This document shows positions 1-26,586 of a stretch of DNA of 43,688 nt, in pieces. The DNA is taken from positions 1-43,688 of IMG/VR virus record IMGVR_UViG_3300025889_000226; one strand, written 5' to 3'. Under the pieces are notes generated by a model. The model was given only the letters and a program-made list of their open reading frames with translations. It ran no database searches and had not been told where the DNA came from. The DNA is from a virus. Each line of letters begins with the position of its first letter. Position 1 is the first letter of the stretch. The position numbers and the translations under genes were made by a program.

Positions 1-3000
1 TGACAATTGGCTTACCTCCATTGTAAAGACGAGCATAAGGAGTTCTGCTATTAGTACGGTCGTACTCATATGCATCACCAGCATCCCAAGCAGGTCGAAT
101 GCCGAAGCCTCTTACTGGTGCTTTACGAACATCTTCACCACGAGTATTACCCCACCAATCTACGAGATAATATCCGACTGCACCTTCGATGGTGCTTACC
201 CCAAGCCCCTGTGAATCACCCCACCAATCACGAGGAGCAGTTGAAGCATTACGAATAATACGAACAGGACAACCGAAGGACCGTGTCATACGACGACCGT
301 CGCTGTAGCGTACTTGCCATTCTGCTTTATCAGGACCAAGCATACCGCTAAAATTAGTTTGACGCTCCATAACACCAACATAGGTGGTAGGTAATGTGGT
401 ATTAGAAAGACCAGCACCACCTGAGTAATTCCAATCTTGCGATTCATATTCTGTTAAAGGACCGGCTTTGTACCCAACAGTGAAGTTGCTGGCACCACTG
501 TAAGTTGCAGCCTCTTGGAACGCACGCATACCATAGTGACCCCATTGCGGTCTATTCCATGCTTGACGAAGCCCGAATCTATATCCAAATGGATAAGTGC
601 GAGTTGTCACGAGGCTCGATGCTATAGCGAGTCCGTCACTTACAGCATATAAGCCGTTATCATCAGCATCTTCCCAGTGTTTTCCACCTGATGCAGTATA
701 AGAACGAGGTACATGCCATCCTGCTGACCAAGCAGCATAACCGTCTAATCTACTGATTAATGGACCACCACGGCTACCACTGGACCAGTAATGACTCAAC
801 ATTACACTTGAACTACCTTGTGCCTCATAACCAGCCATAGCATGAATATTTGATGGTGTTTCAGCCGTTCCATCTGCACCAAAGTAGACTGTAGCACCGG
901 ATGCCGGTGTAAATAGAATATCAGTCGTGAGAGTAATATCAGTTCCACTAACACCTCCCCCTGCTACTTTTCCAAGTATTTTATTTTGAACAAAGAGATA
1001 GTCACCGCCCGTGACACCATCACTGCTAATATCGGCACTAAATGTGATGACAGAAGGAGAGCCTGTGACTGACGAAAATGTACCTGAAAGATTAGACGGA
1101 GGTTTAGGTGTCTTAAAGTTAAGATTGAATGGACCAAGACTGGCTGCGTAGTTCACAGCATGATAATGAACAGTTTCAAAATGCTCAGGAGTTGAGTTAT
1201 ACGCTGCTTTGTCAATAGCACGGTCACTGGTAGCACTACCCCATGTTCGTGTGCTATCTGAATAGAAAGTGTGAGGTCTACCGAGATTCGGATGCCATGC
1301 ACAAATAAAAGCATCAGGCGTATAGAGGCTATTTGTATCTCTTGTTCCCAGTCGCAATTGGTCAATGTTAAGCGACAAAGCACTATTTTTCTCAAATAAT
1401 AGTGATGATATGTCTCGACTATAAGGTCTTGTTAATCGAAGCACACTGTCATTTGGTGGCATGTTTGTAGCAGTAGTAATGAAACGATAAGGTTGATTCA
1501 TTGTAGCGAGACTGTGAGTAGTCCCAGTTCTTTTTGTGTAAGTAATGGTTTGGATTTCACCGTTAGCATCTGTGTAGTATAATTGTTGATTATAATACGG
1601 AACTTCGGGGAATAGCGACGCATCATCAACTTCAATGTAGGCTCCGGTACTGCTACTTTGTACTGTAGCCACTGGTGAAAGTGAAACATTGGCTAATACC
1701 TTTGAATAGAAATCAGGACTAATAGAAGGATAACCTGCTAAAGTCAATTGAGCACCAATTGCACCGTGAGACGCTCGGCAGAACTCGTAGTAATTATCAA
1801 GACGATGAAGAGCGAGGTGTCTAAATCCAGTAGCCGTGGAATCATCAGGACCTACTTTGTGTATTATACTCCACCACGGAATATTCAATGTATATCCGGG
1901 TGTTGAATCGCTAAACATAGTAGCGTGGTAAGGTTGAGCACGACGAGTAAATGCTGGTGATTCACTACCTTGTACTCCGAATGCATTATAAAGCAGCATT
2001 GGTGGTATATTAGTGAACTGGCTGCCGTGGTCGGGGTCATGGTCGAGTATCAATTCGTTAACAAATATCTCACAGCCTCGTACATCAGCGAGCGTCGCTT
2101 CGGCAAGGATGAGAGTCGCCCCTCCAATCGCTGTACCTCTTTCATCATCGTACTTTATGCCGACAACAAGATGCACTTGTTGACCTGTTAGTTCACGAGC
2201 AGTACCATCAGGTAGCCCCGATGCACTACTATTATTGTGATGGAAACCTGTTATCTGTTGTTTTCGTAAATTAGGCTGTATGACTATTTGATAAGCACCA
2301 ACTTCGGCGGGGTCAGGGAAATGACCGTCTTGTGTGTAATTAGCACCGGCTTCAAGAACTATTGAATGTCCTCCTGCCTTATTCATGTCACCAGCAGTAC
2401 CTTTTGAAGCGAGAACACCATAGCCGTCAAAGCGAACCTTAGTTTCAAACATAAGTGTAAATGCTCCACCATGAATGTCACTGGGACCGCTCGGTGTAGC
2501 AGTCAGACTACCTATACGAAGTGGAGAATTGAGCGGGTGTAGATAATCGGTGATTGAACTGCTTAGTGTAGTAGTTGTAGGTGTGACATTGTCATAGAGT
2601 TTAATGAAGTCAGCATTTTGTAGAGTCGCTCTACGCTCAGCCTCATGTTTACCATAAAGTCCCTGATACGCAGGATGTGCCCAATGTCCCGGTAGCATAG
2701 GCATTGTAGCGTTAACAAAGTGGTGTCCCATACGAGGCATCGGCATAGGCGTTAACTGAGGTTTATTGTATCGTTCTATTGCTAATTCAGTAGCACTACC
2801 AGTCAAATACTCAGTGTGTGCCATGTCAGGACTATTACCACTTACTTCTGCGTGGTCACGCAAACGGCGTGCTGCAAAGAAGCGTGTGCTTCCAGCAGGT
2901 ATGTAGTAAGAAGGAGTGATAGTTATTGTAGAGGAAGATGGCGGGTTATCAATAAGGAATTGAGCGAAGTCGATGTCGCCCACTACTCCTGTAAATGTAT

Positions 3001-6000
3001 CACCGCTAATGCCAGTGTATGAAACGACAACGGAATCAGTTGCTGTTTTTAGGCGAAGAAATCTTCTATCATCACTAACTTCTTTTGTACCGAAATTAGC
3101 ATTGAAAATGCGTGTGTTAATTGTAGCCGATGATGTAAGAACGCCACTGCTGTATGAATTTACTGTCAAAGTCTGACTTTCTACTCCATTGCTATGCGTG
3201 TAAGTAGTGGAGTATCTGTCAGTGTGACTATGACCCATCTTAGTGACATGGAAGAATAAAGTACGGTCATGTAATTCATAAGATGATTGTAAAGTACGAT
3301 TATTAGTTGCATCTACCCAACCATCTTTTGTGCTATCAGGGTAAGTTGAATCTTTTGCTATATGTTCCCAACCCAGTTCATTCATTGTTGGACCATAGCG
3401 TGGACCCTTGACCGCATTATCAAACAAGTGACCAAGATGAGAAGCACCAAGGTCAGGGTGTATCATACCACCGTCGCCCATTGTCTCATTCTGATAGGCT
3501 TGCAGTCTATCGAAACCACTACGAACAATGATATTACCCGGTATAGATTCAGGGTCAGGTAGTTGAACTACAAGATTAGGCTCAACTGAACTATTAGCCA
3601 CTGAGGGTGATAATCCATTAGCGAGTCTCTCACCTGCGGAACTAAAGGCACGAATAACTACACCAAGTGGTGAACCTCCACTTAAAGTGTGAGTTTGACC
3701 AGTATCATCAATAACTTCTATATCTTCAAACTGCAAATGCTCGTTTGGAATTTCAAGGACATTTCTTAATTCAGTTGGGTGTTTTTCAGCCAATTGTGGA
3801 TGGGCTAACTCTTGAGCCTGTAAAACGGGTAGCATAGCGGAATTAGTTGTTTCAAATGAGAATCGCACATTACCAAGTAATTTTTCACCAGTAGTATATC
3901 CTGTTCCCCCACTTACTCTATTAACCCAAGGAACAGCACCTAAACCACGAGCATTCACAGCAGGCATAGATAGACTACCACCATCCATTCTCTTCCATAC
4001 TATATGCTCAATATTGAAATTCTTAGCAGGTGAGCGATTATACATTTCATATGCATTAACATCGCCTATCCAAAATGTGTTGCTTTGTTTTGTACCACCA
4101 AACAATGTTGAAGGTTGAACACTCGCTGATGAGTAAAAGTCAGCAGCAACATTTCTTTGTGCTCCAGCACTAACTGAGAAGTGTGAACCTATGCTCTTAT
4201 CGAGGTCGAAGAAGAGGTCACCAGTTTCTTTGAAACATGGCTCCGCATTTTTTAATTCAACATCGCTACCAGCAGCCGGATGCAACTCAATCGCAGCATC
4301 AAATGGAGGACCGTCAAGAGCATTAGAAGCGGTATAATCAGGAATAGTCGGTCGAATGGTTGCTGTATGAATAAGGGCTTCAACATTCGGTCCAGCGTGA
4401 GCAGGTGCATAGAAACGGTCTTGGTCGTGAATACGGTCATCCCATCGAACAGTACCAGCCTTAGATAAATCAGAAGCGTCTGCTAATCTAAGCCAATCAC
4501 CCATGCTCTTTTGTCCATCACGGTCTGTTTTAGCAATCAATGCTAATTCTGACTCATGTGAAACTACAAGGAATGCACGAGAGAACACACCTTGCATGTG
4601 TGTAAGTTCTTTCTGCATTTCAGGCTCATTTTCCATTATAGGTGGAGTGTTAAAATCACTTCCATCGACAAAACCAGTTGTGTATGAACCTACACCGTCA
4701 GCCATGTTGAATGCATCTTGAGGAGCATCAGGGTTGCTATTAGAAGGGAAGGCTGCGAGAGCCAGCGAGCCGTCATTAGGAGGGGAAGATTCAGGACTAT
4801 TCGGCATAGGTGTAATGTTTGGTAAATGACCGAGAACACTGGCACAACTCATACTTCCACCATAAGGTGAAAATCCAAGTGAAGAGTGCCATGCACCTAA
4901 TCCAGCAGCGTAAGTACCTGTAGCGTTGACATCTAATGTATTTAGATAAGAGTATCTTTCACCGTGCCAGCCCACTACACCTACTGGTTTTGTACGGTCA
5001 ATAGCATCAACTAAGCCGTTGAAATGAACTTGACCATATCCATTGCCTCTATTTGAATTTCTCCATGTATGTACTCCGGCTTTTGTCCAAATATACAGTT
5101 TCAATCCAGCAGGTACTGGTACAAGGTCAGGGAATGTCAAAGGAACAGAATCAAGATAATTATCCCATGTAGCGATGCTTTCAAAAGCAGTATAACCAGT
5201 AATGCGATTAGAACCAAGGAAGAATTTTATGTGGTAATCTGTGCCACTTTTCATAATAATTCTACTATGATACGGAGCAAAAGCAGGTGAATCTTCTGAG
5301 CCAACTCCAGTAGCAAAAGAGTTGCTTGTACGAATCCAACCGCTTTCAGGTATTTGCTTAGCAGCAAGATTGTCAGTACCAAAATTAATTGTCAAATATG
5401 AAGCATTCAAATTAGTAGATAGACTTGTGGCTTTAGCGTATTCTAAAATGCTATTTCCGTCAATCTCATGCCATCCGTAGCGGTCTTGACGCATGGTGTT
5501 GCTAAAACTTGGTAAGAAGGTACCACCCATGGATTTCAAAGCCCCTCCGCCGGGGTAAGTATTTATAGCAGCACCGATTAAAGCAGCGAGTTCTTCACCG
5601 TTCTGACATCGGGTAGCGTCAACCGCTATGTACTCCATGTTAACATCGCTTGTGTCTAATGTTTCAGCAACAAAGGAGCCAGCAACGCCGTACAATACTT
5701 TTGTCGCTAATGGTGCTGCTACACGGAATGCACTTGGGTGTAATTCGTCACCGCTTTTACTACTTTTACTCACACGACTATCGTCATCGGGATGTGGTGG
5801 ATTGAATGTGATTTGATTGTCCATCCACGAGCCACCGGGATGATACCCGCCATCCATGTGGAAACACCAGTCTGAACTGCTTGCCATAGCAAAGCCCATG
5901 AACACACCGTGACGATTTGGGTGAGCCATTCGATAATCGTGAACATTACTTAATGTAAGATTTGTTGCACCTGAGGTAAATACTTCACCGTACATTCTTC

Positions 6001-9000
6001 CTGATTCGGGGCGTTGACGCAAAATCTCAACATTAGGTTTACCCTGAGCAGGCTCCCAGTTTAGCGTTTGCCTCCAGTGGAATCTACCACGAGCGAGTTG
6101 ATATGTACTACTTTCAGGCATGTAGTGATTATTATTATTAGTGATATGATTAGGCATAAAATGCTTATTTGACCCTCCGCCCTCAGGGACAGCAGACCAA
6201 GTATTTCCAACAGTCAAAGCACGACCGGGATGTGGTTCAAAGGTATTGACAGGAGTTGCTACTTCCTGAGTGAACGGGAATGCCTGCCCCGGTCCAAAAA
6301 TAAGGAATGTGGTTTTGTTTTCGACTCCTTCACGATGGTCGTTGTACCGAGCAGTAGGGTGAGCGAAACGCAATGCTAACGGTATAGGAACTTGAATAGC
6401 GACTCCAGCAGTATAAGGTGCAGCGTTAGGATGAGCAGGATTTACTACTTGCGAGCCACCCATAATGTCAGGACTGAGAATGTTATCTTGATTAAAGAAC
6501 GGTGGGTTGATAGCACCACGATGCTGGTTTAAAAGAGCGGTACCGGGGAAGAATGCCATAATAGCATTACAATCAATTAATGAGAATGACGATAATGTTT
6601 CATTTGCGTGCTGAATGCCAGCCACACCAGTTGGACCATTAGCATATGGATGTGTGTACTTTTCACTATAATCGTTTTTAGTACCATCATTAACATCAAT
6701 AGTCACTCCGCTAAAGCCACCGCCGAAGAATAGTGGAACTGAGTGGTCACTACTATCACGCCCACCACGGAAAAAGACCTGTGCTCTTGAATGTAAACTA
6801 CCAAGAACACGAACACCAGCAGTCCTAAAAGCACGCTCAATATCCCCAAATCTTTGAATTGTAGGGTCAGTAGCAGGCTTGCTATCAGGTAAAGTCCCAA
6901 TTAGAGTATCTTCGTCAATAATAAAGTGGTCGAGTGAATTACCCCCATGGGCAGCAAGACCGTTGTTTAGTGTTTCTGCTAAACCTGATGCATAATTACT
7001 AAAGTAAACTGTCGACTGACTACCGAAAGATGCGACCTTATCATATGAACTGATAGTATTACCTTCATTACCTGCTGGTATGAAGAAGTGCCATGTAGCC
7101 CCGCTATTTGGAGCCAAACCTACTTCGGGGAATATTGCTGAATTAATGTAAGAGTCATTATCATCAGTTTCAATTGTTGGGTTATTCACCATCGGTAGAA
7201 TATGGTCACCGGAATAAGCAGTGAAGCGTTGTCCATTGAGATTTTGTTCCCATATTTCTATATCAACTGGTTCATTACTTGAATCGACAAGCACAGGAGA
7301 TGCAGTGTTAGCATTAGAACCACGCCCTTTTGTAGTCACTTGCACGACAGTATAGGGTATATAACCAACTTCTGCTCTACGCCCTGCATCAATTTCAGCA
7401 TCTGTAGAAGAGCGATTATCAGATGGTAAGGTGATACCGTTATTTGTCATTTTAACGAATTGAATGTCACCATGTTCAACATGAGCAGCCTGTATTGCCA
7501 TATCTTTATGAATAGTCGCTGAAAAGAAATCAGATATTGGTCGAACATTACGATTTACATTATATGCTCGAATGCGAATAGCATCCTCAGCAACACCCCA
7601 TTCACCTAATGTTCTACCATCACCTGCGAAAAACTCTCTACAATCGAAAGGTATTCCTTCTTCGACATTTGGATTTGGAAGGTTAATAGCAGTTGTAATT
7701 AAGGCTGCCAATAATTCATCAGTCACGAGAGTGGTCCAATTCACACAGGAGGAGACAAGAGCACGAATCGCATTGCCAGCACCATTGCCGTTTCCAAACT
7801 GAGTATCTAATGCTGTAATTGTAGTGCTTGTAGCATAAGTATGAGAGGACATGAACGGAGTACCTTCAACTCCATAGAACACATGAGTACCAGCACTATC
7901 ATTACGGGTCCTACTTGTGTAAGAAAACATATGTCCCCATGAACCTTGAAGGCTTGCATCATTAAACGGGTCTGAGACTTGAATAACCCCGTTGTTAAGA
8001 GGGAAACCCATATAGCCTAAAACATCAAAATGAGGGCATGAGTCATACGGGTCCTCAAATTCAAGTGTGATAGTTCCAGCAGCAGCATCATAATTTGCTT
8101 TACAATCATATGCAGCGTTAGGACTTGGTACACCATTCCATCTATTACCCTTCCAACCAATTAATGTTGCATTGCTTGGGTTAGCACCAAATCTTCCCGT
8201 AGCGTCTCCAAGCCCATGCATGTGAGAACCTATTGTTAAACCACCTTGCCCTGCATCTCTATCATCTATGTAAATTACAATTTCATCTTCAAGAGTGTCA
8301 GGTAATTGAGTTTCATCTAATGTGAAGTCTTTTCCAATGCTTCTGTAAACTATACGAATACCATGCCTATTTCCAAGATGGTCTACGAATTGGAATCCGT
8401 ATAAAGGTGAATTTCCAATAGCGTCATGTGAAACTTCGGAAGCAAGAACATGACTTGTGTAGGTAGAGGGGATGGTATCGTTAGAACTGTTGTAAATTTC
8501 TCCATAGTGTTTTTCAAAACGCTTATCGCCCTTTCTTCCAAAGCCCCATTCTCCAGCATCCGGTGCGAAACCGGGTATTCCTGCTGCTACTAAACCACCA
8601 AAGTTTACACGACCTACTGCTTGTGAGCCACTTCTCAGACCTTCGGTGTATGATGTGACATAACCTTCTGCTTCAAGTGATTCAGTGTTGACTGTATTGA
8701 ATGATTGACCTGAACCTGTCACCATTGACATTGCACGCATGACTGGGTCCGATGATTCGTCACCTCTTTGTGCGAAATCCGCATTAGATTTCACTTGTGA
8801 TGATGATGCGTCAGGTATTGTGTATTGACGCAGTGAAGTAATAGGTGCAAACGGTCGACCATGTTTATTCAACGGCATAGGTGCAGGGTGCATATTTTCT
8901 CCACTGAGTTCGTCAGGTTGACACCAAAATGTTCTAAATCTTCCACCGTGACCAATTAAAAATTCGGGTTGATAAGTAGACTGACCACGAGAATTGTCAA

Positions 9001-12000
9001 GCCACACTGCAAAATTACGACCTGTAGCACCCGGCACAGTGCTATGAATTACAATCGAAAACCCTTCTCTACCGTTTAAATCTTGAACTACACGACCAAG
9101 GTGAGCACGGAAATAACCCATATGTGTACCCATGTCTTGACTGTTGAATGCTTTATCAGAATCCCACCAAACAGCAGGATTGAATGCAGAACCTGTTTGA
9201 CCTGTTGTTGAATTAGTGCGTGCATTCTTAGCACCTGCTTGATTTATGATACGGACTACTTCACGGGCAGCAGCCTCAATATCTGTCACACCTTCACGAG
9301 TAGATACTTCACCGCAATCAATTGTTAAACGACGAGTGAAATCCATATCAGTCCAATGTTTCAAATGCTGGAGTCTTTGCTCACTATGGTTGCTAAGGTC
9401 AAGAGTGTTTGAACGAATCCCACGGAGTGCAAGGAAGGCTGGTATAACACGAGTACCGTCAGGTGTGTCGAATAAAGTTGAAGGGTCCCTCGTAGAAGCA
9501 TTAGTTTTATTTTCACGATGAAGCGTTAACGCTACAATGAAGCGGTCGAGATTTGACCTAACTTTACGGGTGTAATTATGCGATTCATTAGCCCAGTAAG
9601 AAAGAGCAACAGCGTCGTTTGTTCGAGGTAAAATACTGTCTCCAAGTGAACGCTCACTAAATGGACCGCCGATATAATATCCTGTGTGTACGATATGTCC
9701 ATGAGCCTTACCATATTGGTTAATACGGTCAAGGTTAGTTAAGTGAGCAGAAACACCTGTTGGAGAAATACGAGCACGGAAATAACCAGTTGTACCACCG
9801 TTTACTAAAATTAAGTCATTGTGAGTATATCCAGTACCGGCATTATTGATTGTAGCAGCAGTAATAGCACCTCCTGATGCTGTGATGTTTAATGTGAGTC
9901 CTGTACCTGAGCCTGTTATCGCAGTGGTCGCTACCCCAGTAGCAGTAGTATATCCAGTACCATTAGGAGTCCCAGTAGCGTAGTAATCTACTAATGCTGT
10001 GACCTTTCCACCAATGGGTGCTTTCATAACACTGGCAGCATAATGATTAGCAAGGTCGTGTGCGTAAGCACTCTCCATAAATCGAGAGCGAACAGTTGAA
10101 CGCAGATACTTATTTTGAGTTGGATAACCAGCAGCAGTGTCAATCTGAGTAATATAGCCATGTTGACCTGCTCCGTTATACTGAATACCGTATTTACCAA
10201 GGTCAATTTGGTCAGTACCATCGGCTATATTCTGAGCAGTTGTATGGCGTTGGAAACCTATTTCAGCAGCCTTTGGACTGGATTGTACTTGCATATGTAA
10301 ATCTTGGAAAGCGATAAATTCACGGTCGTGAGCGACATCATACAACAGAACACGAGCGTGGTCGTCATTATTCAACACTGGGTCGACATAGGCGACGACG
10401 GGTGGATTGCTAATTCCTAATGTAGCGTAGTTCAATTCTATCGTTGTGTTTACATGTTGAGCGTAATTTTCAGCAGTTTCTCTACAAGTATTTCCAATTA
10501 GGAAGTTTTCAAGTGGAATGGAATCACGAGCATTCGCTGCTAAAGAGCCTTTACCTCCATTGAAGTCCTTCCATACTAATGCCTCATTATAGACACCACG
10601 GCTTTTAGCAAACATTCCTTCAACAGCGTAGGGATTATTGTAAGTCATATTTGCCCAAATAGTGTCTCCGTGCCTTAATCCACCGTTAGCATATGGGAAA
10701 AGCCATGAGCGGTTTAGAATAGCATCATCATCATTTTTCATAACATCTGAGCATCCTACTCTCAAATACGCTTCAATACTACCACCAGCACCGACAGTGC
10801 TTATTAGGTCAACTAAAACTGCCGACAACATATTACCTACAAGATTGATGACCGTATCTGTTGAAGGTGGTGATTGAGCCTGTCCCTCATCAATTGATTC
10901 AACAGTACCAAGATAGAAAACTTGCTCCACTACACTGGTGCCCGTGTTAAATCTTTCACAATAAACTTCATCACCAACTTGAACATCAAGTCCAGTTGTG
11001 TTGGCTTGGAGTAAACCTGTGTGAGTTGCGTTAGTGACCGTAATAGCCAATTTAGTAGGTGTAGGTGAACTCTTGATAGTCCAAGGATGACGACCGGAAG
11101 GTGGTCGATATGTTTGACTTATGTTTAAATTAGTTTCAAGACTTCTGCTTAATTTATCTTCTTCAAAACCAATATCGAAACCTCGATGCGTTAAGAGAGC
11201 ATCTTGGTTTAGAATAAACTCAGACTGAGTAGCATCGAGGTAATTAGGAAGAGAGCCTCCTTTATTGTAAATATCTTCTACGAGTATTGAATTACGATAC
11301 TGCTCGTTGCTGGTAGGTGAGCCACTCAAAGCACTCCATGTAGCAGTAGCATCGCCCCAGTAGATAAAGCGTCGAGTAGTGCCATCAGGTGATGATGTTT
11401 CAAGACTATAGTTGTAGTCACCTGTTTCAAAAGCGATGTTTCCATTACTGTCAATATTAGGAGTGACATTAGGAAACAGTTCAGCCTGCTCTTCGCTAAA
11501 TGACAATACAACAAGACCAGTGAAAGTTGACCCGTTCATTATAGGTGTGACCCCAAGAACCTCTCCTGTAGCCCTACCTGTTTGAACACGAGGAGCGTGA
11601 GGATTAGTTGTAGGTCCAGCCTTAAATTCAACAGCACTTACATACTGACGAAGCCCGTAATCTACATTACCGCCTTGAGTTTTCACGCTCGCTGCATCAT
11701 AGTAATATTCACTTCTTCTTTCAATTGCAGATGAAGGGGACAAAGGACTTCCTTCAAGAGCAACTAAAGATTCAGATTGAGAAGAGCCACCTACAAGAAG
11801 AGTCATCCCTACTTGATGAAGTCGTATAAAATCCTCAGAAAAAGCCCATGGTTCATCTTCAAATTCAAGATAACCGTCAGTGGCAGGGTCGTTTTCATAA
11901 ATAATCCAATCACCACTTGGTAAAAATGCACGCTGGTGTCTTTGCACTTCTTCGACATAGAAATAATCAGGCTCAGAACCTGATACTTTGTTGATGTCAG

Positions 12001-15000
12001 CAGCAGGGAAAATTTCAGGATTTGATACATACAATCGGTACATACCACTTACAACTTCCGCTTTATGCTGTATAGAAGCACTTCGAGTATATTCATCTTG
12101 TGAAAGTGAATAAGCATATGCAGCCTGAGCAGTACGGTCACCCGGTGCTATCTCAGGGTATCTTCTACCTACAGGTGAAGGGTTCCAAGTGTGAGCCGTC
12201 ATTGTAGGGTCAAGATGAAGTTTTAATGAGTTATCAGGACCGGGAAAAATACCCTCAGCAGCATTTTCAAAGAATTGCTCATTAAAGAAAGGAATCTCCA
12301 CAAGAGCACGAGTGCTTGCGAATTGAGTACCTAATTGATAATCATGAGTGACAGTGTCCATTGATTGAAACATACGGTCGTTAACAGTAGTACCGTCTGA
12401 TGCTGCGTTTTCCATGTAAAAATTACCATCACCGAGTATAATTTCACCAAGTGAAAACGATGCAGAATTACCACTGGCTACTGCTCCTGCTTCTGCACTT
12501 AATCCCGATGCGTCTAACCACTCGTAAAAATTGGCTACCTCAGAACCATCAGGTAAAACGAATGTGCCACTACCCACAGTGGCATCAGTAAAGAAGAAAG
12601 CAACTCCGCTTTTACTACTGTATTCAGCACTCGCACCTGTTTTCAAAAACAATCTCCCTTTCTTTGGGAACGGATAAGTACCCCAAGCCTTGAGGTCATC
12701 TGCTCCATTGTTAAGTGCTCTAACTTCAATATACTGCACACGGTCGGCAGGCGTTGTGTCACGGTCAACATGAACTAATGTGGCGAAACAAGAGAAGCCA
12801 TATCTTGTATTATAAGGCAGTCTTGAAAGAGTGCTTGGGTCAAATGAAGGATTAGTGTCATATGCACCTTGACCTATACCTCCGAGAGTCACTGATACAA
12901 CAGGAGCATTGGGGTCAATTTCTTTGACGACATGCGAGTCAGGACTACCTGAGCCGATTTCATCAACGCTACGGTCAATCGCTGCTGAATTTATACCAAC
13001 ACATCGAACTCTCGTAAAGCGAGAGCCTTCGTCACTTTCTTCTTCTGCAACACTACGAAGACGAGCACGAGTCATCAGGAACATCACAGTGACATAGTGA
13101 GAATCACTACCGTGAGTTAGTTCTGATTTTATATGCCTCAATTGCGTTGTACGATTTCTATCAGATGGTTGGACAAATATACGCTGAGAGATAGTAGGTA
13201 AAGCAACAGCGTGGTTGTCGATAATGTCAAACATTTCATGAACAGGACCAAAAGACGCTGCGATACCAGTATCAAATTGACCATCGCTCGGAGAAGTTAA
13301 ATCGAGTGCTGGCTCTCTTCGAGGGTTAGTGTATGTGCCAGCACTGTTCGCTTCTATGATAATGCGATGAAATACTGATTCATGGTCGGTACTTGTTGTA
13401 TGCGACGCATTGATATTTTGAGGTGGTCGGCGTGGCTCATCACGAACTGTGGTATAGTTTTGAGGGGTATAGCGTTCATCTAATTCATCGTCACTCTCAT
13501 ATCCTTCGCTGTTATCACCCACAAGAGCATGAGTAAAGGATGCTTGAGCGAAATTACCTTCACGGGCACCTGCGACTTCAATGATGCCACCGGGCGAGTG
13601 AATCGTAGCCCCGCTACTTAAAGCAGACTCAATTGCATCAATAACATATGTAGAGCCAGTAAGAAGATGATTTGATGCAGGTACAGTCTTTTCCACCATC
13701 AACATTGGAGCAGTTTTATTCATACTGGCTCCTGTAAAATCAATAGCATTGTAGTGAATTTCTACAAACGGTGCCATATTATACGATGAAAGGTCTACTT
13801 CAAGAATAGCGACTCTACTGGTGGCTGACGGTCGAAGATGGTGCTTTCGGATATTCGCATCTACTTGACCTACTTCTTGAGGCACAGGTCCTTTCAAAAC
13901 AAACGGTTTAGCGTCAAACTCTACATTTGTACCACTACCTCCGATAGCAATCAACTTTCTCAATGCTCCTGTTAAACCGTTATCTACTGCTTCATATGCA
14001 GTGCTGCTTGATATAACATTGATAATTTGTGACTGTGCAATGTCTCGATAATAGTCTACTTTACTATTGATAGGAAATTGTTTATCAATACCTTTGGCTG
14101 ACTCGTCAAAAATTAAATCCACAATGTCGGCATTGCCTACTTGCTGGTCAAGAATTTCTTCATTAGCACGAGGCATATTACGAAGGTATTGATGCCCGTT
14201 AACATGATTTAGAATATGCCTACCTGAATGACCAATTTGAAATGATTCATCAAGCCCACTTGTCCAATTCACAGCAAAAGGATTGTTAGGGTCATTTGTT
14301 GTAGTAGCCATACGGCTGGAGAAAACAATGCCGTGTTGTTCTAAATCACTTTCATCAAGAATCATTTGTCCAGTTCTATCAATTAACTGGGATGCGAGAT
14401 GAGGAGGTTGGTAAGGGCGACCCGTACCGTTGTCGAGTAGTAAGTCAGCAGATACAACCACAAAGTAGTCGTCACCAGTTGCAGCACTACGAGAATGTAG
14501 AACAGGGCGTAGCCCATCACCGTTGGTGGAAGTGTTGAAATCAAGATGAATACTACTGACGAGCAACGCTCCCGTATCGACATTGATGTTATGGAGTCGG
14601 ACACGCTCAGGTGGAGACTGATTCGGTTTTTGATTGTCTCTATTGATAGCCCCCGGATTGATAAGAAGATTGTAGGGTACATGGGGCACAGCATGTGTTT
14701 GTTTCGTACCGGGTGTAGTTTTGTAATCAACAACACTATACTTCCCAGTGGAGTAAGGAGAGGCGGTAAAATCAACAGTGCCGGAAGATACAGATTTCCC
14801 TGTTAGAGTAGATGCTAATGAAGCAGCATCGCTTGTGCTGATGTTAATCGCTGAAAGATTACTTGCTGATGAAATCGAGTTGATAGTAAACAGTCCTTCA
14901 ATCGGCTCAATCGGCTCTTCAAAACGAAATAGAGCAAGAGTGTTAGTATTGACTAACGCAGCATTTCTACTTGTCATCTCACTACTAAAAGAAGATGAAA

Positions 15001-15661
15001 TATGTATGCTTTCAATAATTCCCCTAAACTGTCCACCTGAGCCTCCAACATAGACATGAGCGTCAGACTCAGGTAGTGTGAAATCACCGGGAATCCTTTC
15101 TTCCGCCATCAACTCTCCATTAATAAAAAGAGAAGCAGTTGAGCCACCTACCTTAGCGACAACATGAATAAGAGGGCGTTGATTAATGTTCAAATTTGTA
15201 GCATCATCTTTAGCGGAATCAAAACGATTGTATGAATCATCAAAAGAGCCAAATGTTGTACTTGGATAAACTGTTCCATCGTACCCTGTGCTTACTTCTG
15301 TAGCAGTAGTGAGTATTATTTTTCGTAAGCCACCTTCACTAATGACATTGACTTCAAACTTAGCAGGTCCGGGCGTATCTACATTACCTATACTCAATTG
15401 AAATTGTTTTTCTTTTGAAAGAATGACACCACCGCAGTCAGGAGTCACCCATGCTTCTATTGCTATGTCTCCACCGAGAGCATCACTAATTACACTCCCT
15501 ACACGAGCACCTTGAGATGAGTCGCTAATTATATCAGAAGCACTACGGTCACCATCAGCAGTATCACGACCTAATTTACTAAATACACCTTGTGGTATAA
15601 TGACCCCATCACTCACGCCATCAAAGAAAAGAGCGTGATTTGATTGAAGCATGACCGGCAT
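1..15661 (-). CDS. Giant distal tail / host-recognition protein (>=5,220 aa, C-terminus outside window)
   Basis: A single frame stays open from an ATG at 15661 to the left edge; codon phase agrees at both ends and at the internal points I checked. The start follows GAGGTGA plus an A-run, 9 bases after the upstream gene. Residues about 60-255 look like a LamG/concanavalin-A-like jellyroll: AIEAWV opening, SKEKQF strand, FINGEL (the lyNG signature), HVYVGG, then a closing strand ending ALFRFEE. Residues about 1885-1960 hold Gly/Thr-rich strands (GTGYTTATG, AGTGYT) common in tail fibres. Residues about 4395-4550 (FTLMFETKVRFDG, VHLVVGI, IFVNEL) look like a second LamG-type fold. The rest is Ser/Thr/Gly/Asn-rich and beta-like, with few cysteines and no obvious membrane segment. 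Position after the tape measure and a baseplate-like gene points to the tail tip or fibre, with glycan-binding domains for host attachment. The function is inferred; size is directly seen. Confidence 0.85.
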   Translation of the reverse strand, partial: MPVMLQSNHALFFDGVSDGVIIPQGVFSKLGRDTADGDRSASDIISDSSQGARVGSVISDALGGDIAIEAWVTPDCGGVILSKEKQFQLSIGNVDTPGPAKFEVNVISEGGLRKIILTTATEVSTGYDGTVYPSTTFGSFDDSYNRFDSAKDDATNLNINQRPLIHVVAKVGGSTASLFINGELMAEERIPGDFTLPESDAHVYVGGSGGQFRGIIESIHISSSFSSEMTSRNAALVNTNTLALFRFEEPIEPIEGLFTINSISSASNLSAINISTSDAASLASTLTGKSVSSGTVDFTASPYSTGKYSVVDYKTTPGTKQTHAVPHVPYNLLINPGAINRDNQKPNQSPPERVRLHNINVDTGALLVSSIHLDFNTSTNGDGLRPVLHSRSAATGDDYFVVVSADLLLDNGTGRPYQPPHLASQLIDRTGQMILDESDLEQHGIVFSSRMATTTNDPNNPFAVNWTSGLDESFQIGHSGRHILNHVNGHQYLRNMPRANEEILDQQVGNADIVDLIFDESAKGIDKQFPINSKVDYYRDIAQSQIINVISSSTAYEAVDNGLTGALRKLIAIGGSGTNVEFDAKPFVLKGPVPQEVGQVDANIRKHHLRPSATSRVAILEVDLSSYNMAPFVEIHYNAIDFTGASMNKTAPMLMVEKTVPASNHLLTGSTYVIDAIESALSSGATIHSPGGIIEVAGAREGNFAQASFTHALVGDNSEGYESDDELDERYTPQNYTTVRDEPRRPPQNINASHTTSTDHESVFHRIIIEANSAGTYTNPRREPALDLTSPSDGQFDTGIAASFGPVHEMFDIIDNHAVALPTISQRIFVQPSDRNRTTQLRHIKSELTHGSDSHYVTVMFLMTRARLRSVAEEESDEGSRFTRVRCVGINSAAIDRSVDEIGSGSPDSHVVKEIDPNAPVVSVTLGGIGQGAYDTNPSFDPSTLSRLPYNTRYGFSCFATLVHVDRDTTPADRVQYIEVRALNNGADDLKAWGTYPFPKKGRLFLKTGASAEYSSKSGVAFFFTDATVGSGTFVLPDGSEVANFYEWLDASGLSAEAGAVASGNSASFSLGEIILGDGNFYMENAASDGTTVNDRMFQSMDTVTHDYQLGTQFASTRALVEIPFFNEQFFENAAEGIFPGPDNSLKLHLDPTMTAHTWNPSPVGRRYPEIAPGDRTAQAAYAYSLSQDEYTRSASIQHKAEVVSGMYRLYVSNPEIFPAADINKVSGSEPDYFYVEEVQRHQRAFLPSGDWIIYENDPATDGYLEFEDEPWAFSEDFIRLHQVGMTLLVGGSSQSESLVALEGSPLSPSSAIERRSEYYYDAASVKTQGGNVDYGLRQYVSAVEFKAGPTTNPHAPRVQTGRATGEVLGVTPIMNGSTFTGLVVLSFSEEQAELFPNVTPNIDSNGNIAFETGDYNYSLETSSPDGTTRRFIYWGDATATWSALSGSPTSNEQYRNSILVEDIYNKGGSLPNYLDATQSEFILNQDALLTHRGFDIGFEEDKLSRSLETNLNISQTYRPPSGRHPWTIKSSPTPTKLAITVTNATHTGLLQANTTGLDVQVGDEVYCERFNTGTSVVEQVFYLGTVESIDEGQAQSPPSTDTVINLVGNMLSAVLVDLISTVGAGGSIEAYLRVGCSDVMKNDDDAILNRSWLFPYANGGLRHGDTIWANMTYNNPYAVEGMFAKSRGVYNEALVWKDFNGGKGSLAANARDSIPLENFLIGNTCRETAENYAQHVNTTIELNYATLGISNPPVVAYVDPVLNNDDHARVLLYDVAHDREFIAFQDLHMQVQSSPKAAEIGFQRHTTAQNIADGTDQIDLGKYGIQYNGAGQHGYITQIDTAAGYPTQNKYLRSTVRSRFMESAYAHDLANHYAASVMKAPIGGKVTALVDYYATGTPNGTGYTTATGVATTAITGSGTGLTLNITASGGAITAATINNAGTGYTHNDLILVNGGTTGYFRARISPTGVSAHLTNLDRINQYGKAHGHIVHTGYYIGGPFSERSLGDSILPRTNDAVALSYWANESHNYTRKVRSNLDRFIVALTLHRENKTNASTRDPSTLFDTPDGTRVIPAFLALRGIRSNTLDLSNHSEQRLQHLKHWTDMDFTRRLTIDCGEVSTREGVTDIEAAAREVVRIINQAGAKNARTNSTTGQTGSAFNPAVWWDSDKAFNSQDMGTHMGYFRAHLGRVVQDLNGREGFSIVIHSTVPGATGRNFAVWLDNSRGQSTYQPEFLIGHGGRFRTFWCQPDELSGENMHPAPMPLNKHGRPFAPITSLRQYTIPDASSSQVKSNADFAQRGDESSDPVMRAMSMVTGSGQSFNTVNTESLEAEGYVTSYTEGLRSGSQAVGRVNFGGLVAAGIPGFAPDAGEWGFGRKGDKRFEKHYGEIYNSSNDTIPSTYTSHVLASEVSHDAIGNSPLYGFQFVDHLGNRHGIRIVYRSIGKDFTLDETQLPDTLEDEIVIYIDDRDAGQGGLTIGSHMHGLGDATGRFGANPSNATLIGWKGNRWNGVPSPNAAYDCKANYDAAAGTITLEFEDPYDSCPHFDVLGYMGFPLNNGVIQVSDPFNDASLQGSWGHMFSYTSRTRNDSAGTHVFYGVEGTPFMSSHTYATSTTITALDTQFGNGNGAGNAIRALVSSCVNWTTLVTDELLAALITTAINLPNPNVEEGIPFDCREFFAGDGRTLGEWGVAEDAIRIRAYNVNRNVRPISDFFSATIHKDMAIQAAHVEHGDIQFVKMTNNGITLPSDNRSSTDAEIDAGRRAEVGYIPYTVVQVTTKGRGSNANTASPVLVDSSNEPVDIEIWEQNLNGQRFTAYSGDHILPMVNNPTIETDDNDSYINSAIFPEVGLAPNSGATWHFFIPAGNEGNTISSYDKVASFGSQSTVYFSNYASGLAETLNNGLAAHGGNSLDHFIIDEDTLIGTLPDSKPATDPTIQRFGDIERAFRTAGVRVLGSLHSRAQVFFRGGRDSSDHSVPLFFGGGFSGVTIDVNDGTKNDYSEKYTHPYANGPTGVAGIQHANETLSSFSLIDCNAIMAFFPGTALLNQHRGAINPPFFNQDNILSPDIMGGSQVVNPAHPNAAPYTAGVAIQVPIPLALRFAHPTARYNDHREGVENKTTFLIFGPGQAFPFTQEVATPVNTFEPHPGRALTVGNTWSAVPEGGGSNKHFMPNHITNNNNHYMPESSTYQLARGRFHWRQTLNWEPAQGKPNVEILRQRPESGRMYGEVFTSGATNLTLSNVHDYRMAHPNRHGVFMGFAMASSSDWCFHMDGGYHPGGSWMDNQITFNPPHPDDDSRVSKSSKSGDELHPSAFRVAAPLATKVLYGVAGSFVAETLDTSDVNMEYIAVDATRCQNGEELAALIGAAINTYPGGGALKSMGGTFLPSFSNTMRQDRYGWHEIDGNSILEYAKATSLSTNLNASYLTINFGTDNLAAKQIPESGWIRTSNSFATGVGSEDSPAFAPYHSRIIMKSGTDYHIKFFLGSNRITGYTAFESIATWDNYLDSVPLTFPDLVPVPAGLKLYIWTKAGVHTWRNSNRGNGYGQVHFNGLVDAIDRTKPVGVVGWHGERYSYLNTLDVNATGTYAAGLGAWHSSLGFSPYGGSMSCASVLGHLPNITPMPNSPESSPPNDGSLALAAFPSNSNPDAPQDAFNMADGVGSYTTGFVDGSDFNTPPIMENEPEMQKELTHMQGVFSRAFLVVSHESELALIAKTDRDGQKSMGDWLRLADASDLSKAGTVRWDDRIHDQDRFYAPAHAGPNVEALIHTATIRPTIPDYTASNALDGPPFDAAIELHPAAGSDVELKNAEPCFKETGDLFFDLDKSIGSHFSVSAGAQRNVAADFYSSASVQPSTLFGGTKQSNTFWIGDVNAYEMYNRSPAKNFNIEHIVWKRMDGGSLSMPAVNARGLGAVPWVNRVSGGTGYTTGEKLLGNVRFSFETTNSAMLPVLQAQELAHPQLAEKHPTELRNVLEIPNEHLQFEDIEVIDDTGQTHTLSGGSPLGVVIRAFSSAGERLANGLSPSVANSSVEPNLVVQLPDPESIPGNIIVRSGFDRLQAYQNETMGDGGMIHPDLGASHLGHLFDNAVKGPRYGPTMNELGWEHIAKDSTYPDSTKDGWVDATNNRTLQSSYELHDRTLFFHVTKMGHSHTDRYSTTYTHSNGVESQTLTVNSYSSGVLTSSATINTRIFNANFGTKEVSDDRRFLRLKTATDSVVVSYTGISGDTFTGVVGDIDFAQFLIDNPPSSSTITITPSYYIPAGSTRFFAARRLRDHAEVSGNSPDMAHTEYLTGSATELAIERYNKPQLTPMPMPRMGHHFVNATMPMLPGHWAHPAYQGLYGKHEAERRATLQNADFIKLYDNVTPTTTTLSSSITDYLHPLNSPLRIGSLTATPSGPSDIHGGAFTLMFETKVRFDGYGVLASKGTAGDMNKAGGHSIVLEAGANYTQDGHFPDPAEVGAYQIVIQPNLRKQQITGFHHNNSSASGLPDGTARELTGQQVHLVVGIKYDDERGTAIGGATLILAEATLADVRGCEIFVNELILDHDPDHGSQFTNIPPMLLYNAFGVQGSESPAFTRRAQPYHATMFSDSTPGYTLNIPWWSIIHKVGPDDSTATGFRHLALHRLDNYYEFCRASHGAIGAQLTLAGYPSISPDFYSKVLANVSLSPVATVQSSSTGAYIEVDDASLFPEVPYYNQQLYYTDANGEIQTITYTKRTGTTHSLATMNQPYRFITTATNMPPNDSVLRLTRPYSRDISSLLFEKNSALSLNIDQLRLGTRDTNSLYTPDAFICAWHPNLGRPHTFYSDSTRTWGSATSDRAIDKAAYNSTPEHFETVHYHAVNYAASLGPFNLNFKTPKPPSNLSGTFSSVTGSPSVITFSADISSDGVTGGDYLFVQNKILGKVAGGGVSGTDITLTTDILFTPASGATVYFGADGTAETPSNIHAMAGYEAQGSSSVMLSHYWSSGSRGGPLISRLDGYAAWSAGWHVPRSYTASGGKHWEDADDNGLYAVSDGLAIASSLVTTRTYPFGYRFGLRQAWNRPQWGHYGMRAFQEAATYSGASNFTVGYKAGPLTEYESQDWNYSGGAGLSNTTLPTTYVGVMERQTNFSGMLGPDKAEWQVRYSDGRRMTRSFGCPVRIIRNASTAPRDWWGDSQGLGVSTIEGAVGYYLVDWWGNTRGEDVRKAPVRGFGIRPAWDAGDAYEYDRTNSRTPYARLYNGGKPIV

Positions 15662-15670
15662 TTTTTCACC

Positions 15671-16882
15671 TCATGCAAGTGCGTCGATTGGTGCAAAGAC
15701 CATTTGATATGTGTAAAGTTGCTCACCAGCACTATATGACACATCGAATTTTTGAATTGCCCCTTGGATGCCAGTTGCATTGTCATCGGTGCTAAATTCG
15801 ACAGATGTTGAATTGTCATTTCCTTGCGACATTTTTGAGTCAACTGTTTGAAAGCCAGTACGAATTAAAAAATTACGAGCGGTGTATTTTTTACCATCAG
15901 GTGCTTGTATCATTGAATTGTATGGAATTTGAATACCTATCGGGTAATCTCCTTCAACTTTAAAATAATCAGCAATACCAACACCAACACCAGCAGCAGC
16001 ACCAGCAAAAGCAACAGCAGCACCACCACCAGTGGCTACAGTAGCAGCAACTGCACCTACACCGAGTAAAGTACCTCCAACTATGGCACTACCTAATCTT
16101 TGTGTGTTGTGTAAAATACCGTACAAATCTTGAACTTTATCACCGGCTGACTTCACAATGCTCGACGCATCTGAGCCACCTGTGAATTGAGTATGATAAG
16201 GGAAGAAATCACTACTATTACTAAAAGACACACTTGATGAGCGAGACATTGGTCCACTGGTCGATTGAGTAATTGTGAGTAAAGTATTACCAGCAGATGG
16301 TACAATTTCAGAAGTGGTAAGAGATGTAGTAAATTCCCCAAATGTCGCTATTGCAGCAGCGACAGCAGTAGCCAATTGAGGTCCTGTAATGAAAGTTGAA
16401 GTAGCAGTATCTTTGACTCGAATATTTCCACCGCTAATATGACCGACAGAACCTGCATTGGCGTAGAAATAAATGTTATACCCTGTTCCACTTTTTGAAT
16501 AAAGAGTAAGCGAATACGACCCGCCTGCTAACTTTACATAGTCAGATGAAGTAATAACTTGACCGGAGCCAAATGCTTGAGCGTTTTTATTTTCAATTCC
16601 AAAATCAATTTGAGCAATTGCAGCAGAAGCCGTAGGAGTCCTTCTCGATAAGTCGTCATCGACAAATATACCTTCGATAATAATAGTCGAGTTCGACCTG
16701 TTTAAGTCTATACCAAATCTTTTACCACCAGTAAACGGCATAGACATACCACCAACTTTTCGCTCCACACTTAATGCAATAGAAAGAGCATTGAGTTCCA
16801 TTCCACCTTCATAACCAGCACTACGCATAGCCTTAGGGTCGTCAAAAAGAAGGCGAATAGGAGTACCATAGCCGTCAGACAT
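15671..16882 (-). CDS. Putative baseplate / distal tail protein with internal hydrophobic segment
   Basis: 403 aa if started at ATG 16882, which sits 8 bases after GGGAGG; an in-frame GTG at 16888 is too close to that site. It follows the tape measure gene directly, the usual place for distal tail or baseplate hub proteins. The N-terminal 90 residues are beta-rich (GGKRFGIDL, TIIIEGIFVDDD). Residues about 110-240 look like an inserted beta module with a short helix (LATAVAAAIATFG) and a strand pair (NTLLTITQSTSG) rich in Ser/Thr. Residues 266-304 form a long Gly/Ala/Val hydrophobic stretch containing GVGAVAATVATGGG, which could insert in a membrane or host envelope. The C-terminal 90 residues return to beta structure and may complete the first domain. 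No family recognised with certainty; role is from position. Confidence 0.7.
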   Translation of the reverse strand: MSDGYGTPIRLLFDDPKAMRSAGYEGGMELNALSIALSVERKVGGMSMPFTGGKRFGIDLNRSNSTIIIEGIFVDDDLSRRTPTASAAIAQIDFGIENKNAQAFGSGQVITSSDYVKLAGGSYSLTLYSKSGTGYNIYFYANAGSVGHISGGNIRVKDTATSTFITGPQLATAVAAAIATFGEFTTSLTTSEIVPSAGNTLLTITQSTSGPMSRSSSVSFSNSSDFFPYHTQFTGGSDASSIVKSAGDKVQDLYGILHNTQRLGSAIVGGTLLGVGAVAATVATGGGAAVAFAGAAAGVGVGIADYFKVEGDYPIGIQIPYNSMIQAPDGKKYTARNFLIRTGFQTVDSKMSQGNDNSTSVEFSTDDNATGIQGAIQKFDVSYSAGEQLYTYQMVFAPIDALA

Positions 16883-16884
16883 AC

Positions 16885-18210
16885 TCACATCCTCCCTCGC
16901 ATTGTCGTACCACCGAGAGCACGAGAGACTTCTTGCTGAATCATATTACCCATTGAGCGAGCCAGTTCACGCTTGTCCGTGCGGTCAGTTATACCACTTG
17001 GATTGATGCTGATGTTAAATGTATTTCCACCGCCACCGCCACCACCTTTCATTTCAACAGGAATAGAGCGACCTCCTGATAACGGCACAACAGCCTCAGT
17101 TCCATGTAGCATAACAGGATAACCACTGTTTGGTCCACTGGCTACCCCACCTTCAGAAAATCCAAGTAAGTCACCTGCACCACCAATAGCACTACCAAGA
17201 AGGTCACCGCCTGCTGATAATATATCAGCGAAGCCGTCTATAATAGGTTCGAGTAAATCCCATATCGCTCCGCAAAGCCATAATATACCGTCAAATATCG
17301 GCTCAATAATGTTATCATACGCCCAACTCATACCGTCTACAAGTAAATCCCATGCATCTATGAAAGGAGAAAAGATTATTTTACCAGCCAATTTAGTTGC
17401 TTCCCATAAAGGTCCTATGGTATCTGCCCATGATTGTGACATAGATGTCGTAATCAAATCCCAATTTTCGTAAATAGATACAATTGCTTCAATCAATGGA
17501 CCAAAAATGAACATAATAGGTGTCACGACATAAGCATCCCAAGCGTTAGCCATAGCAGTGATAACACTACTCCATCTATCGCTTATACTTCCTAAACCTC
17601 CAAAGATAGCCTCGACAAGAGGATTGATAAGAATACCAAGACTGTTATTCCACACATCTTTCATGCCACTCATGACCGCATCCCAGTCTCCTTTTGCTAA
17701 AGCCATACCAACTTTGAACAAGTCGATAAACGGTTGAATTACTGGCATAATTACAGCATCCCATATTCCAGCCATAGCATCCATAACACCTTCCCAATCT
17801 CCTCGTGCTAATGCCATACCTGCCATGAACAAGCCAACAAATATGTCAATGAGAGGCTGAATTGTAAGGTTCCAAGCGACCTCTAACGCTGCTACTAATA
17901 TCTCCCATGCGACTAAAATAATGTCAAATGCCGTTCCTATTGTGGCTGATAAAAAGGTCGCTATCAATGTAATTAAAGGCTCAGCGACTGCGTAAAAAGC
18001 ATCCCAAATCGGCATGATATTTTCATTCCACCATGCCTTAAACGAGGCAAATTGCTCTCTTAGCCAGTCAATAGCAGGTCCGATGAAACTCAGAATAGCG
18101 GAGCCTACACCACCGATAATTCCACCCAATGAACTAAACAGTCCAGTCAATCCACCCGCAGAAGCAGTTAATCCACTTAGAGCGACCGTTAAACCTGCTA
18201 ATGCTACCAT
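16885..18210 (-). CDS. Tape measure protein (short, Trp-rich repeats)
   Basis: 441 aa from ATG 18210, 8 bases after GGAGG; the stop of the preceding T frame and this start share one base (TGATG). The C-terminal third carries the familiar tape-measure signature GGVASGPNSGYPVMLHGTEA followed by VVPL, a Gly run, then NTFNISINPSG and an amphipathic tail. The N-terminus is hydrophobic and Gly-rich (residues 1-50). Residues about 117-310 contain imperfect repeats of 35-40 residues built on a P-[LF]-[IV]-[DE] turn, a GDW/RW/NW tryptophan and a second W, for example GMALARGDWEGVM and GMALAKGDWDAVM. Tape measures set tail length and are threaded through the tail tube during assembly. At the usual 0.15 nm per residue this predicts a tail near 65 nm, short for a siphovirus. 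Preceded by the G/T chaperones, as expected. Confidence 0.9.
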   Translation of the reverse strand: MVALAGLTVALSGLTASAGGLTGLFSSLGGIIGGVGSAILSFIGPAIDWLREQFASFKAWWNENIMPIWDAFYAVAEPLITLIATFLSATIGTAFDIILVAWEILVAALEVAWNLTIQPLIDIFVGLFMAGMALARGDWEGVMDAMAGIWDAVIMPVIQPFIDLFKVGMALAKGDWDAVMSGMKDVWNNSLGILINPLVEAIFGGLGSISDRWSSVITAMANAWDAYVVTPIMFIFGPLIEAIVSIYENWDLITTSMSQSWADTIGPLWEATKLAGKIIFSPFIDAWDLLVDGMSWAYDNIIEPIFDGILWLCGAIWDLLEPIIDGFADILSAGGDLLGSAIGGAGDLLGFSEGGVASGPNSGYPVMLHGTEAVVPLSGGRSIPVEMKGGGGGGGNTFNISINPSGITDRTDKRELARSMGNMIQQEVSRALGGTTMRGRM

Positions 18211-18506
18211 CAAAAGTCCTCCATTTCTAACCAGTCATAATCAAGAGAGACAGTCTCCCGCCCTCCGCTCTTTGCCTCTTGTTGACGACGCTTCATTTGT
18301 TTTTCCTCTTGACTCCTGCCAACAAGGGTCCATACGAGAGATTGTTGAAAAGTTTCAGGAGACATTTCATGAACTTCTTTGAGTGATATATTGAAATGTT
18401 TAGCCACGATATACCCCCATAATTCTATTTGCATTGCTATGTCTTTCTTGCTGGCGACGGTCTTACGACTGAGGAACTCCTCAGTCTCTAAGCGTCGCCT
18501 TTCGTA
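18210..18506 (-). CDS. Tail assembly chaperone T extension, made as a G-T fusion by -1 frameshift
   Basis: This frame lies -1 to the G gene and is open from 18536 down to the stop at 18210. A -1 slip of the Phe codon at 18506-18508 onto the overlapping UUU would give a 214-aa fusion, 116 residues of G plus 98 from this frame, joining as LQGDF/YERRRLETEEFL. An ATG at 18434 would give a separate 74-aa protein, but I see no ribosome-binding site before it. The region contains helix-type sequence typical of T domains (WGYIVAKHFNISLKEV, then MSPETF) and a basic, Gln-rich end (KQMKRRQQEAK). In lambda-like systems G and G-T bind the tape measure and tail tube subunits and are absent from the virion. 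The gene order chaperone, frameshift, tape measure is retained here. Confidence 0.72.
   Translation of the reverse strand, partial: YERRRLETEEFLSRKTVASKKDIAMQIELWGYIVAKHFNISLKEVHEMSPETFQQSLVWTLVGRSQEEKQMKRRQQEAKSGGRETVSLDYDWLEMEDF
18467..18486 (-). promoter_or_regulatory. Perfect hairpin downstream of the frameshift site
   Basis: An inverted repeat GACTGAGG-N4-CCTCAGTC (8 perfect base pairs, 4-base loop; it can close one pair further) starts 2 bases past the stop codon of the G-like gene and 19 bases past the proposed slip codon. It lies inside the T frame. It may stall the ribosome and favour the -1 slip, though the spacing is longer than the 5-9 bases common for stimulators. Confidence 0.5.
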
Positions 18507-21313: not shown

Positions 21314-21323
21314 CCGGCTCACC

Positions 21324-26577: not shown

Positions 26578-26586
26578 ATTTTTCAT

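What the first reader, a model, noticed from the sequence alone, without database searches (positions are those of the whole stretch)
1..15661. One unbroken viral reading frame of at least 5,220 codons
The left third of the window is a single minus-strand frame from a good ribosome-binding site to the edge, with no stop. Phase matches at the start, at several internal points I checked (e.g. around 12060 and 8740) and at position 1. Viral structural proteins over 5,000 aa are rare. It is not closed at the left edge, so the true size is larger. Size exceeds the tape measure more than ten-fold, implying a large tail-tip organ or fibres.
Basis: seen in the sequence. Interest (0 to 1): 0.72.

Follow-up and report, generated by a model that had tools for sequence, protein, structure and literature searches.

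The report
Giant tail protein of archaeal virus
A virus that probably infects abundant uncultured ocean archaea carries one gene for a single protein of about 5,700 amino acids, most likely a huge tail-tip attachment protein, and every related virus contig that reaches this position carries the same giant gene.

Summary
Window 15661→2 (minus strand) is one open frame of 5,220 codons with no stop, cut by the left contig edge. Relatives close it: 14 complete copies of 5,447–6,126 aa, 46–82% identical to the window, align with it end to end and continue 452–473 aa past its cut, so the window protein should be about 5,675 aa (~610 kDa). More unbroken frames above 5,200 aa exist. All 18 blocks of 300 codons are under purifying selection, so this is neither chance nor an assembly join.

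The virus fits the magroviruses (tailed viruses of Poseidoniales archaea, thermosome-carrying group). The gene lies in the tail module, two genes after the tape measure. It starts with a lectin-like jelly roll. The remaining ~4,900 aa gave no convincing Pfam or PDB match, and PHROG matches only to one small plug-in domain. Relatives differ notably by ~70-aa domains inserted at many sites.

Best explanation: a tail-tip or tail-fibre adhesin (inferred, not shown). A homologue is already deposited in UniProt without a name; I found no paper that describes the protein.

The parts
2..15661 (-). Giant ORF, 5,220 codons present, C-terminus (about 454 aa) missing beyond the left edge
15666..15670 (-). 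GGTGA Shine-Dalgarno before the giant ORF
   Evidence: read from sequence
14993..15472 (-). LamG / concanavalin-A-like jelly roll, about residues 64-223
   Evidence: Pfam PF13385 in 37 of 41 homologues (the window itself scores 27.4, just under the 27.6 cut-off); AF2 model and Foldseek
9764..9988 (-). Plug-in domain type A, residues 1892-1966; absent from several relatives, present at two further sites in others
   Evidence: PHROG 697, 438, 4406, 5342, 6005, 460
869..1099 (-). Plug-in domain type C, residues 4855-4931; absent from L095, L096, L098-L100; folds confidently on its own in the model of a homologue
1457..1678 (-). Small beta domain, about residues 4662-4735; predicted with confidence in the model of a homologue (approximate mapping)
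15671..16888 (-). 405-aa ORF directly upstream, no family match; by position a distal-tail-protein candidate (inference)
16885..18213 (-). Tape measure protein, 442 aa as called
   Evidence: PHROG tape-measure families, best E 1.2e-10
19358..21322 (-). Tail protein, 654 aa (weak minor-tail / tail-tube matches); homologues carry domain B
25405..26586 (-). Major capsid protein
   Evidence: PHROG 24667, E 2e-58
26617..28029 (-). Head maturation protease
35038..36750 (-). Portal protein
39940..41424 (-). Terminase large subunit

Best explanation
The ORF encodes one giant virion protein (about 5,675 aa, ~610 kDa when complete) of a magrovirus-type tailed virus of marine archaea, and the most likely role is a tail-tip or tail-fibre adhesin. 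Shown: the frame is real, conserved and collinear in a clade, lies in the tail module two genes after the tape measure, begins with a lectin-like jelly roll, and carries small interchangeable beta domains at many points. Inferred: conserved parts anchor it to the tail end, the long body forms a largely beta-structured arm or tip complex, and the jelly roll and plug-in domains touch glycans or proteins on the host surface. Plug-in gain and loss, plus occasional recombination within the gene, would let the binding surface change without rebuilding the scaffold. Whether it is trimeric, or cleaved after translation, is unknown.
For: Structural gene order terminase, portal, protease, capsid, tail genes, tape measure, 405-aa ORF, giant ORF. 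LamG domain in 37 of 41 homologues, with AF2 model and Foldseek matches to concanavalin-like lectins, marine phage LamG proteins and cyanophage baseplate wedge initiators. Domain A is shared with phage baseplate, tail-fibre and virion structural families. Domain B occurs both in giant homologues and in the 654-aa tail protein of relatives. Site 670, a domain B insertion point, lies between a predicted strand and a helix of a confidently modelled domain. G001 and G020 are 96.6% identical upstream, but the middle of the giant gene falls to 71-91%, as a swapped binding region would. No conserved polymerase motif, no membrane span.
Against: No virion proteomics or microscopy. The ~4,900 aa after the jelly roll gave no convincing family or PDB match. 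The C-terminal model failed (mean pLDDT 36.5). In five other close pairs with comparable data the giant gene is as conserved as, or more conserved than, its neighbours, so it is not a typical hypervariable adhesin gene overall.
Confidence: 0.62

Rival explanations
1. It is a virion surface protein, but on the head or along the tail (decoration fibres or whiskers) rather than at the tail tip.
For: LamG and plug-in beta domains are common on many virion surfaces; PHROG families matching domain A include head and connector proteins.
Against: Its gene lies at the distal end of the tail module, immediately after tape measure plus one ORF, not next to the capsid genes.
Confidence: 0.15
2. It is a polyprotein that is cut into several tail or baseplate proteins after translation.
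For: Very long, with conserved stretches separated by variable insertion sites; the virus has a head maturation protease.
Against: No repeated cleavage motif or internal protease domain was seen, though I did no dedicated search; no homologue split into separate genes was found apart from one at an assembly gap.
Confidence: 0.12
3. It is an internal virion protein (second tape measure, ejected protein or virion RNA polymerase), as with the 5,002-aa tape measure of Thermus phage P23-45 (PMC10770324).
For: Comparable size in a tail module.
Against: A separate tape measure is present; no D-x-D-x-D motif is conserved among the homologues; strand-rich model with a lectin fold.
Confidence: 0.05
4. 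It is an artefact of assembly or chance.
For: Single truncated contig as given.
Against: 14 closed full-length homologues, hundreds of related stretches, uniform purifying selection.
Confidence: 0.01

Closest known systems
Unnamed UniProt viral protein A0A1B1IU10 (BFVD fragment 1)
   Same: 49% identity over about 1,225 columns to the N-terminal 1,200 aa; clearly a homologue
   Different: No name or function in the tables at hand; full length not seen here
Magroviruses (order Magrovirales, e.g. Apasviridae, Aoguangviridae; PMC12999244, PMC10768690, PMC5332604)
   Same: 90-110 kb tailed-virus genomes with divergent PolB related to Druskaviridae, RFC, PD-(D/E)XK nuclease, chaperonin, opposed replication and structural modules
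   Different: The papers I could read do not describe this giant protein; PMC10160649 lists a LamG (Laminin_G_3) match as an auxiliary metabolic gene
Giant tape measure protein gp96 of Thermus phage P23-45 (5,002 aa, PMC10770324)
   Same: Single tail-module protein of about 5,000 aa
   Different: That one is the tape measure with an N-terminal RNA polymerase; here the tape measure is a separate short ORF and the giant begins with a lectin fold
Tail-fibre adhesins of haloarchaeal tailed viruses (Hafunaviridae, PMC8651126)
   Same: Proposed role, host attachment of archaeal tailed viruses
   Different: Those are glycine-rich adhesins in a hypervariable region; no homology tested or claimed
Promiscuous Ig-like domains on phage tail proteins (reviewed in PMC8718954)
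   Same: Small beta domains added to tail proteins of different phages
   Different: Domains A, B and C have no Pfam match; B and C have no PHROG match

Membership tests
Magrovirus (thermosome-carrying group, Nishimura clade 1) | Tailed-virus structural module with HK97-type capsid, portal, protease and TerL | tested here: met
   PHROG matches in the window
Magrovirus (thermosome-carrying group, Nishimura clade 1) | Family B DNA polymerase related to that of Druskaviridae | tested here: met
   In relative G002, not in the window, which lacks the replication module: Pfam PF00136 and best INPHARED hits to Halorubrum HRTV-type viruses
Magrovirus (thermosome-carrying group, Nishimura clade 1) | Archaeal-type (group II) chaperonin gene | tested here: met
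   PF00118 in 14 of 14 near-complete relatives; the G002 copy is closest to thermosome models, slightly under their cut-offs
Magrovirus (thermosome-carrying group, Nishimura clade 1) | Genome of about 90-110 kb | tested here: met
   Many relatives' contigs are 95-111 kb; the window itself is a 43.7-kb fragment
Magrovirus (thermosome-carrying group, Nishimura clade 1) | Direct clustering with named magrovirus genomes | not testable with these tools
   OR863078 and ON649702 are not held
Magrovirus (thermosome-carrying group, Nishimura clade 1) | Poseidoniales host | tested here: inconclusive
   Chaperonin scan of bacterial and archaeal genomes gave one distant archaeal match; host rests on literature
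Phage tail-fibre or tail-tip adhesin | Gene in the distal tail region after the tape measure | tested here: met
Phage tail-fibre or tail-tip adhesin | Carbohydrate-binding or other host-binding fold | tested here: met
   LamG jelly roll by Pfam and by fold; binding itself untested
Phage tail-fibre or tail-tip adhesin | Faster divergence or exchange than neighbouring genes | tested here: inconclusive
   One pair shows it clearly; five comparable pairs do not
Phage tail-fibre or tail-tip adhesin | Presence at the tail tip of particles | not testable with these tools
   No cultured virus
Virion RNA polymerase / giant tape measure (P23-45 type) | Conserved D-x-D-x-D catalytic motif | tested here: not met
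   Scattered matches, no conserved position; L098 has none

The most novel reading that the evidence does not exclude
A clade of abundant marine archaeal viruses has merged its host-binding apparatus into one polypeptide of 5,300-6,100 aa, among the largest virion proteins known, and tunes it by moving ~70-aa plug-in domains between sites in the gene, between genes and between viruses, while the scaffold stays under strong purifying selection.
Probability: 0.35. Interest if true: 0.7.

Novelty: new variant of a known kind. Interest (0 to 1): 0.52.

Why it matters
[quoted passage not shown] If the reading is right, one gene, about 16% of the 107-kb genome of the closest relative, is the main candidate for that step and gives a defined target for expression, structure and binding tests. 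It also bears on annotation: a LamG domain reported as an auxiliary metabolic gene of magroviruses may in some genomes be the first domain of this tail protein (a suggestion, not tested on their genomes). Few viral proteins of this length are described, and how one folds, assembles and is packed on a virion is an open question.

Tried and rejected
Chance or assembly artefact: rejected. Split gene: G021's break lies at N runs; G009 and G027 run off contig ends; G015's contig ends before the gene should start. Internal repeats: all-against-all profile comparison of 300-aa segments gave nothing above 16% probability, so it is not a detectable tandem-repeat protein. Virion polymerase: no conserved motif. 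The idea that the middle is generally hypervariable came from one pair and did not hold in five others; I withdrew it as a general claim. C-terminal AF2 model: too poor to search. Similarity search of isolated phages with N-terminal, middle and C-terminal pieces: nothing credible. Foldseek hits of the N-terminal model to PAPP-A, pentraxin and clostridial neurotoxin binding domains reflect the shared jelly-roll fold at about 10% identity; I read no functional kinship into them. Named magrovirus records are not in the phage collection.

Full report
Observation. The minus-strand frame from 15661 to base 2 is 5,220 codons without a stop; the other five frames hold 252-624 stops each and the chance expectation is about 10^-135. 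Third-position GC is 29% against 54% and 47% at positions 1 and 2, which is coding behaviour. GGTGA lies at 15666-15670 just before the ATG. The record is a 43,688-base virus contig and ends at the window's edge, so the stop had to come from relatives.

Relatives. A scan of viral contigs with the neighbouring tail-module ORF 22121-23740 gave 225 related stretches. Nineteen of 20 larger contigs encode a match to the N-terminal 1,000 aa at 39-83% identity; the exception ends before the gene would begin. Fourteen complete copies of 5,447-6,126 aa were read in full. They align with the window end to end at 46-82% identity and run 452-473 aa past its truncated end. The window protein is therefore expected at about 5,675 aa, ~610 kDa by comparison with its closest relative (612 kDa). 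A second scan from the C-terminus found 328 related stretches; in the 43 I examined the frame is closed and the C-terminal ending (GHKGDV...DHSGD or PKGS.GD...GDHSG) is recognisable. More frames of 5,264-6,072 aa were seen without being read in full. pN/pS is 0.08-0.26 in all 18 blocks of 300 codons against the closest relative.

Which virus. The window has terminase, portal, protease, capsid, tail genes and tape measure in order. The 107-kb closest relative adds a family B polymerase nearest to those of haloarchaeal Druskaviridae-type viruses, replication factor C and a group II chaperonin, a PD-(D/E)XK nuclease and a SNF2 helicase. The chaperonin family is found in all 14 near-complete relatives. 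Literature reports viruses of Marine Group II archaea with divergent PolB, one clade with thermosome genes and others with GroEL (PMC5332604), and 90-110-kb magrovirus genomes with opposed structural and replication modules (PMC12999244, PMC10768690). This fits the thermosome-bearing magroviruses. I could not cluster with named genomes because they are not held, and a genome scan gave no host.

What the protein looks like. A LamG / concanavalin-like domain is found in 37 of 41 N-terminal homologues. The AlphaFold2 model of residues 1-1200 (mean pLDDT 69) is mostly strand, with several well-predicted domains up to about residue 890. Foldseek returns jelly-roll lectins in PDB and, among viral models, marine phage LamG proteins, cyanophage baseplate wedge initiators and one direct homologue, A0A1B1IU10, at 49% identity. 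The remaining ~4,900 aa gave no Pfam, PDB or PHROG match beyond chance-level or single-member hits and the one plug-in domain. The C-terminal 1,200 aa are strongly conserved but could not be modelled as a monomer (pLDDT 36.5), except for two small inserted domains that did fold. An obligate multimer would explain this but is not shown.

Plug-in domains. Length differences are concentrated at discrete sites. Three domain types of 68-80 aa account for many of them. Type A is in the window (residues 1892-1966) and at up to three sites in others, and it matches phage baseplate, tail-fibre and virion structural families. Type B is absent from the window but sits at one to four sites in eight of the 15 giants compared; copies at equivalent sites in sister genomes are 97-98% identical in DNA, while copies at different sites are about 70-78% identical over their length. 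It also occurs in the 654-aa tail protein of relatives and in unrelated ORFs of other viral contigs. Type C is in the window at 4855-4931. This is a pattern of small domains gained and lost within a conserved scaffold; the transfer mechanism is not known.

Recombination. G001 and G020 share 96.6% identity in the upstream genes and 91-99% in the first ~2.5 kb and last ~1.5 kb of the giant gene, yet 71-91% in the middle ~12 kb. This looks like exchange of the central part with flanks retained. Five other close pairs with comparable data do not show it, so it is an instance, not a rule.

Interpretation. Position after the tape measure, a lectin-like start, plug-in domains shared with other virion proteins, and the absence of polymerase motifs or membrane spans make a tail-tip or tail-fibre adhesin the best reading (0.62). 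Head decoration, polyprotein and internal protein remain possible with decreasing weight. The giant tape measure of P23-45 (5,002 aa, PMC10770324) is the nearest size precedent I read; it differs in kind.

Novelty. The virus group is known and a homologue is deposited without a name. Within the open-access papers searched I found no description of the protein; key papers on magroviruses were not readable here, so 'undescribed' is provisional. I rate it a new variant of a known kind: a tail adhesin candidate of extreme length with interchangeable domains.

Noticed in passing
28026..33425 (-): A 1,799-aa ORF between portal and head protease genes with no Pfam or PHROG family match above noise; conserved in length (1,857 aa) in relative G002. 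Unidentified, possibly a virion protein.
   Followed up: no
18807..19346 (-): 179-aa ORF in the tail module with a SAP (nucleic-acid-binding) domain, E 4.4e-11; unusual at that position.
   Followed up: no
L084 5643-7118 (relative G002): The chaperonin gene lies about 5 kb downstream of the giant gene on the opposite strand and is present in all 14 near-complete relatives. It might help fold the giant protein; speculation.
   Followed up: partly
L200, L273 and other loci: Domain B (~68 aa, GM.VSGTGIP core, no Pfam or PHROG match) is widespread in viral contigs, in the 654-aa tail protein of relatives and in unrelated ORFs; it could merit its own family entry.
   Followed up: partly
window residues about 4398-4430 (about 2374-2470, -): By eye a second LamG-like stretch (GGAFTLMFETKVRFDGYGVLASKG); not supported by Pfam.
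   Followed up: no
L088 vs L089 (G001 vs G020): Central part of the giant gene apparently replaced in otherwise ~97% identical genomes.
   Followed up: yes
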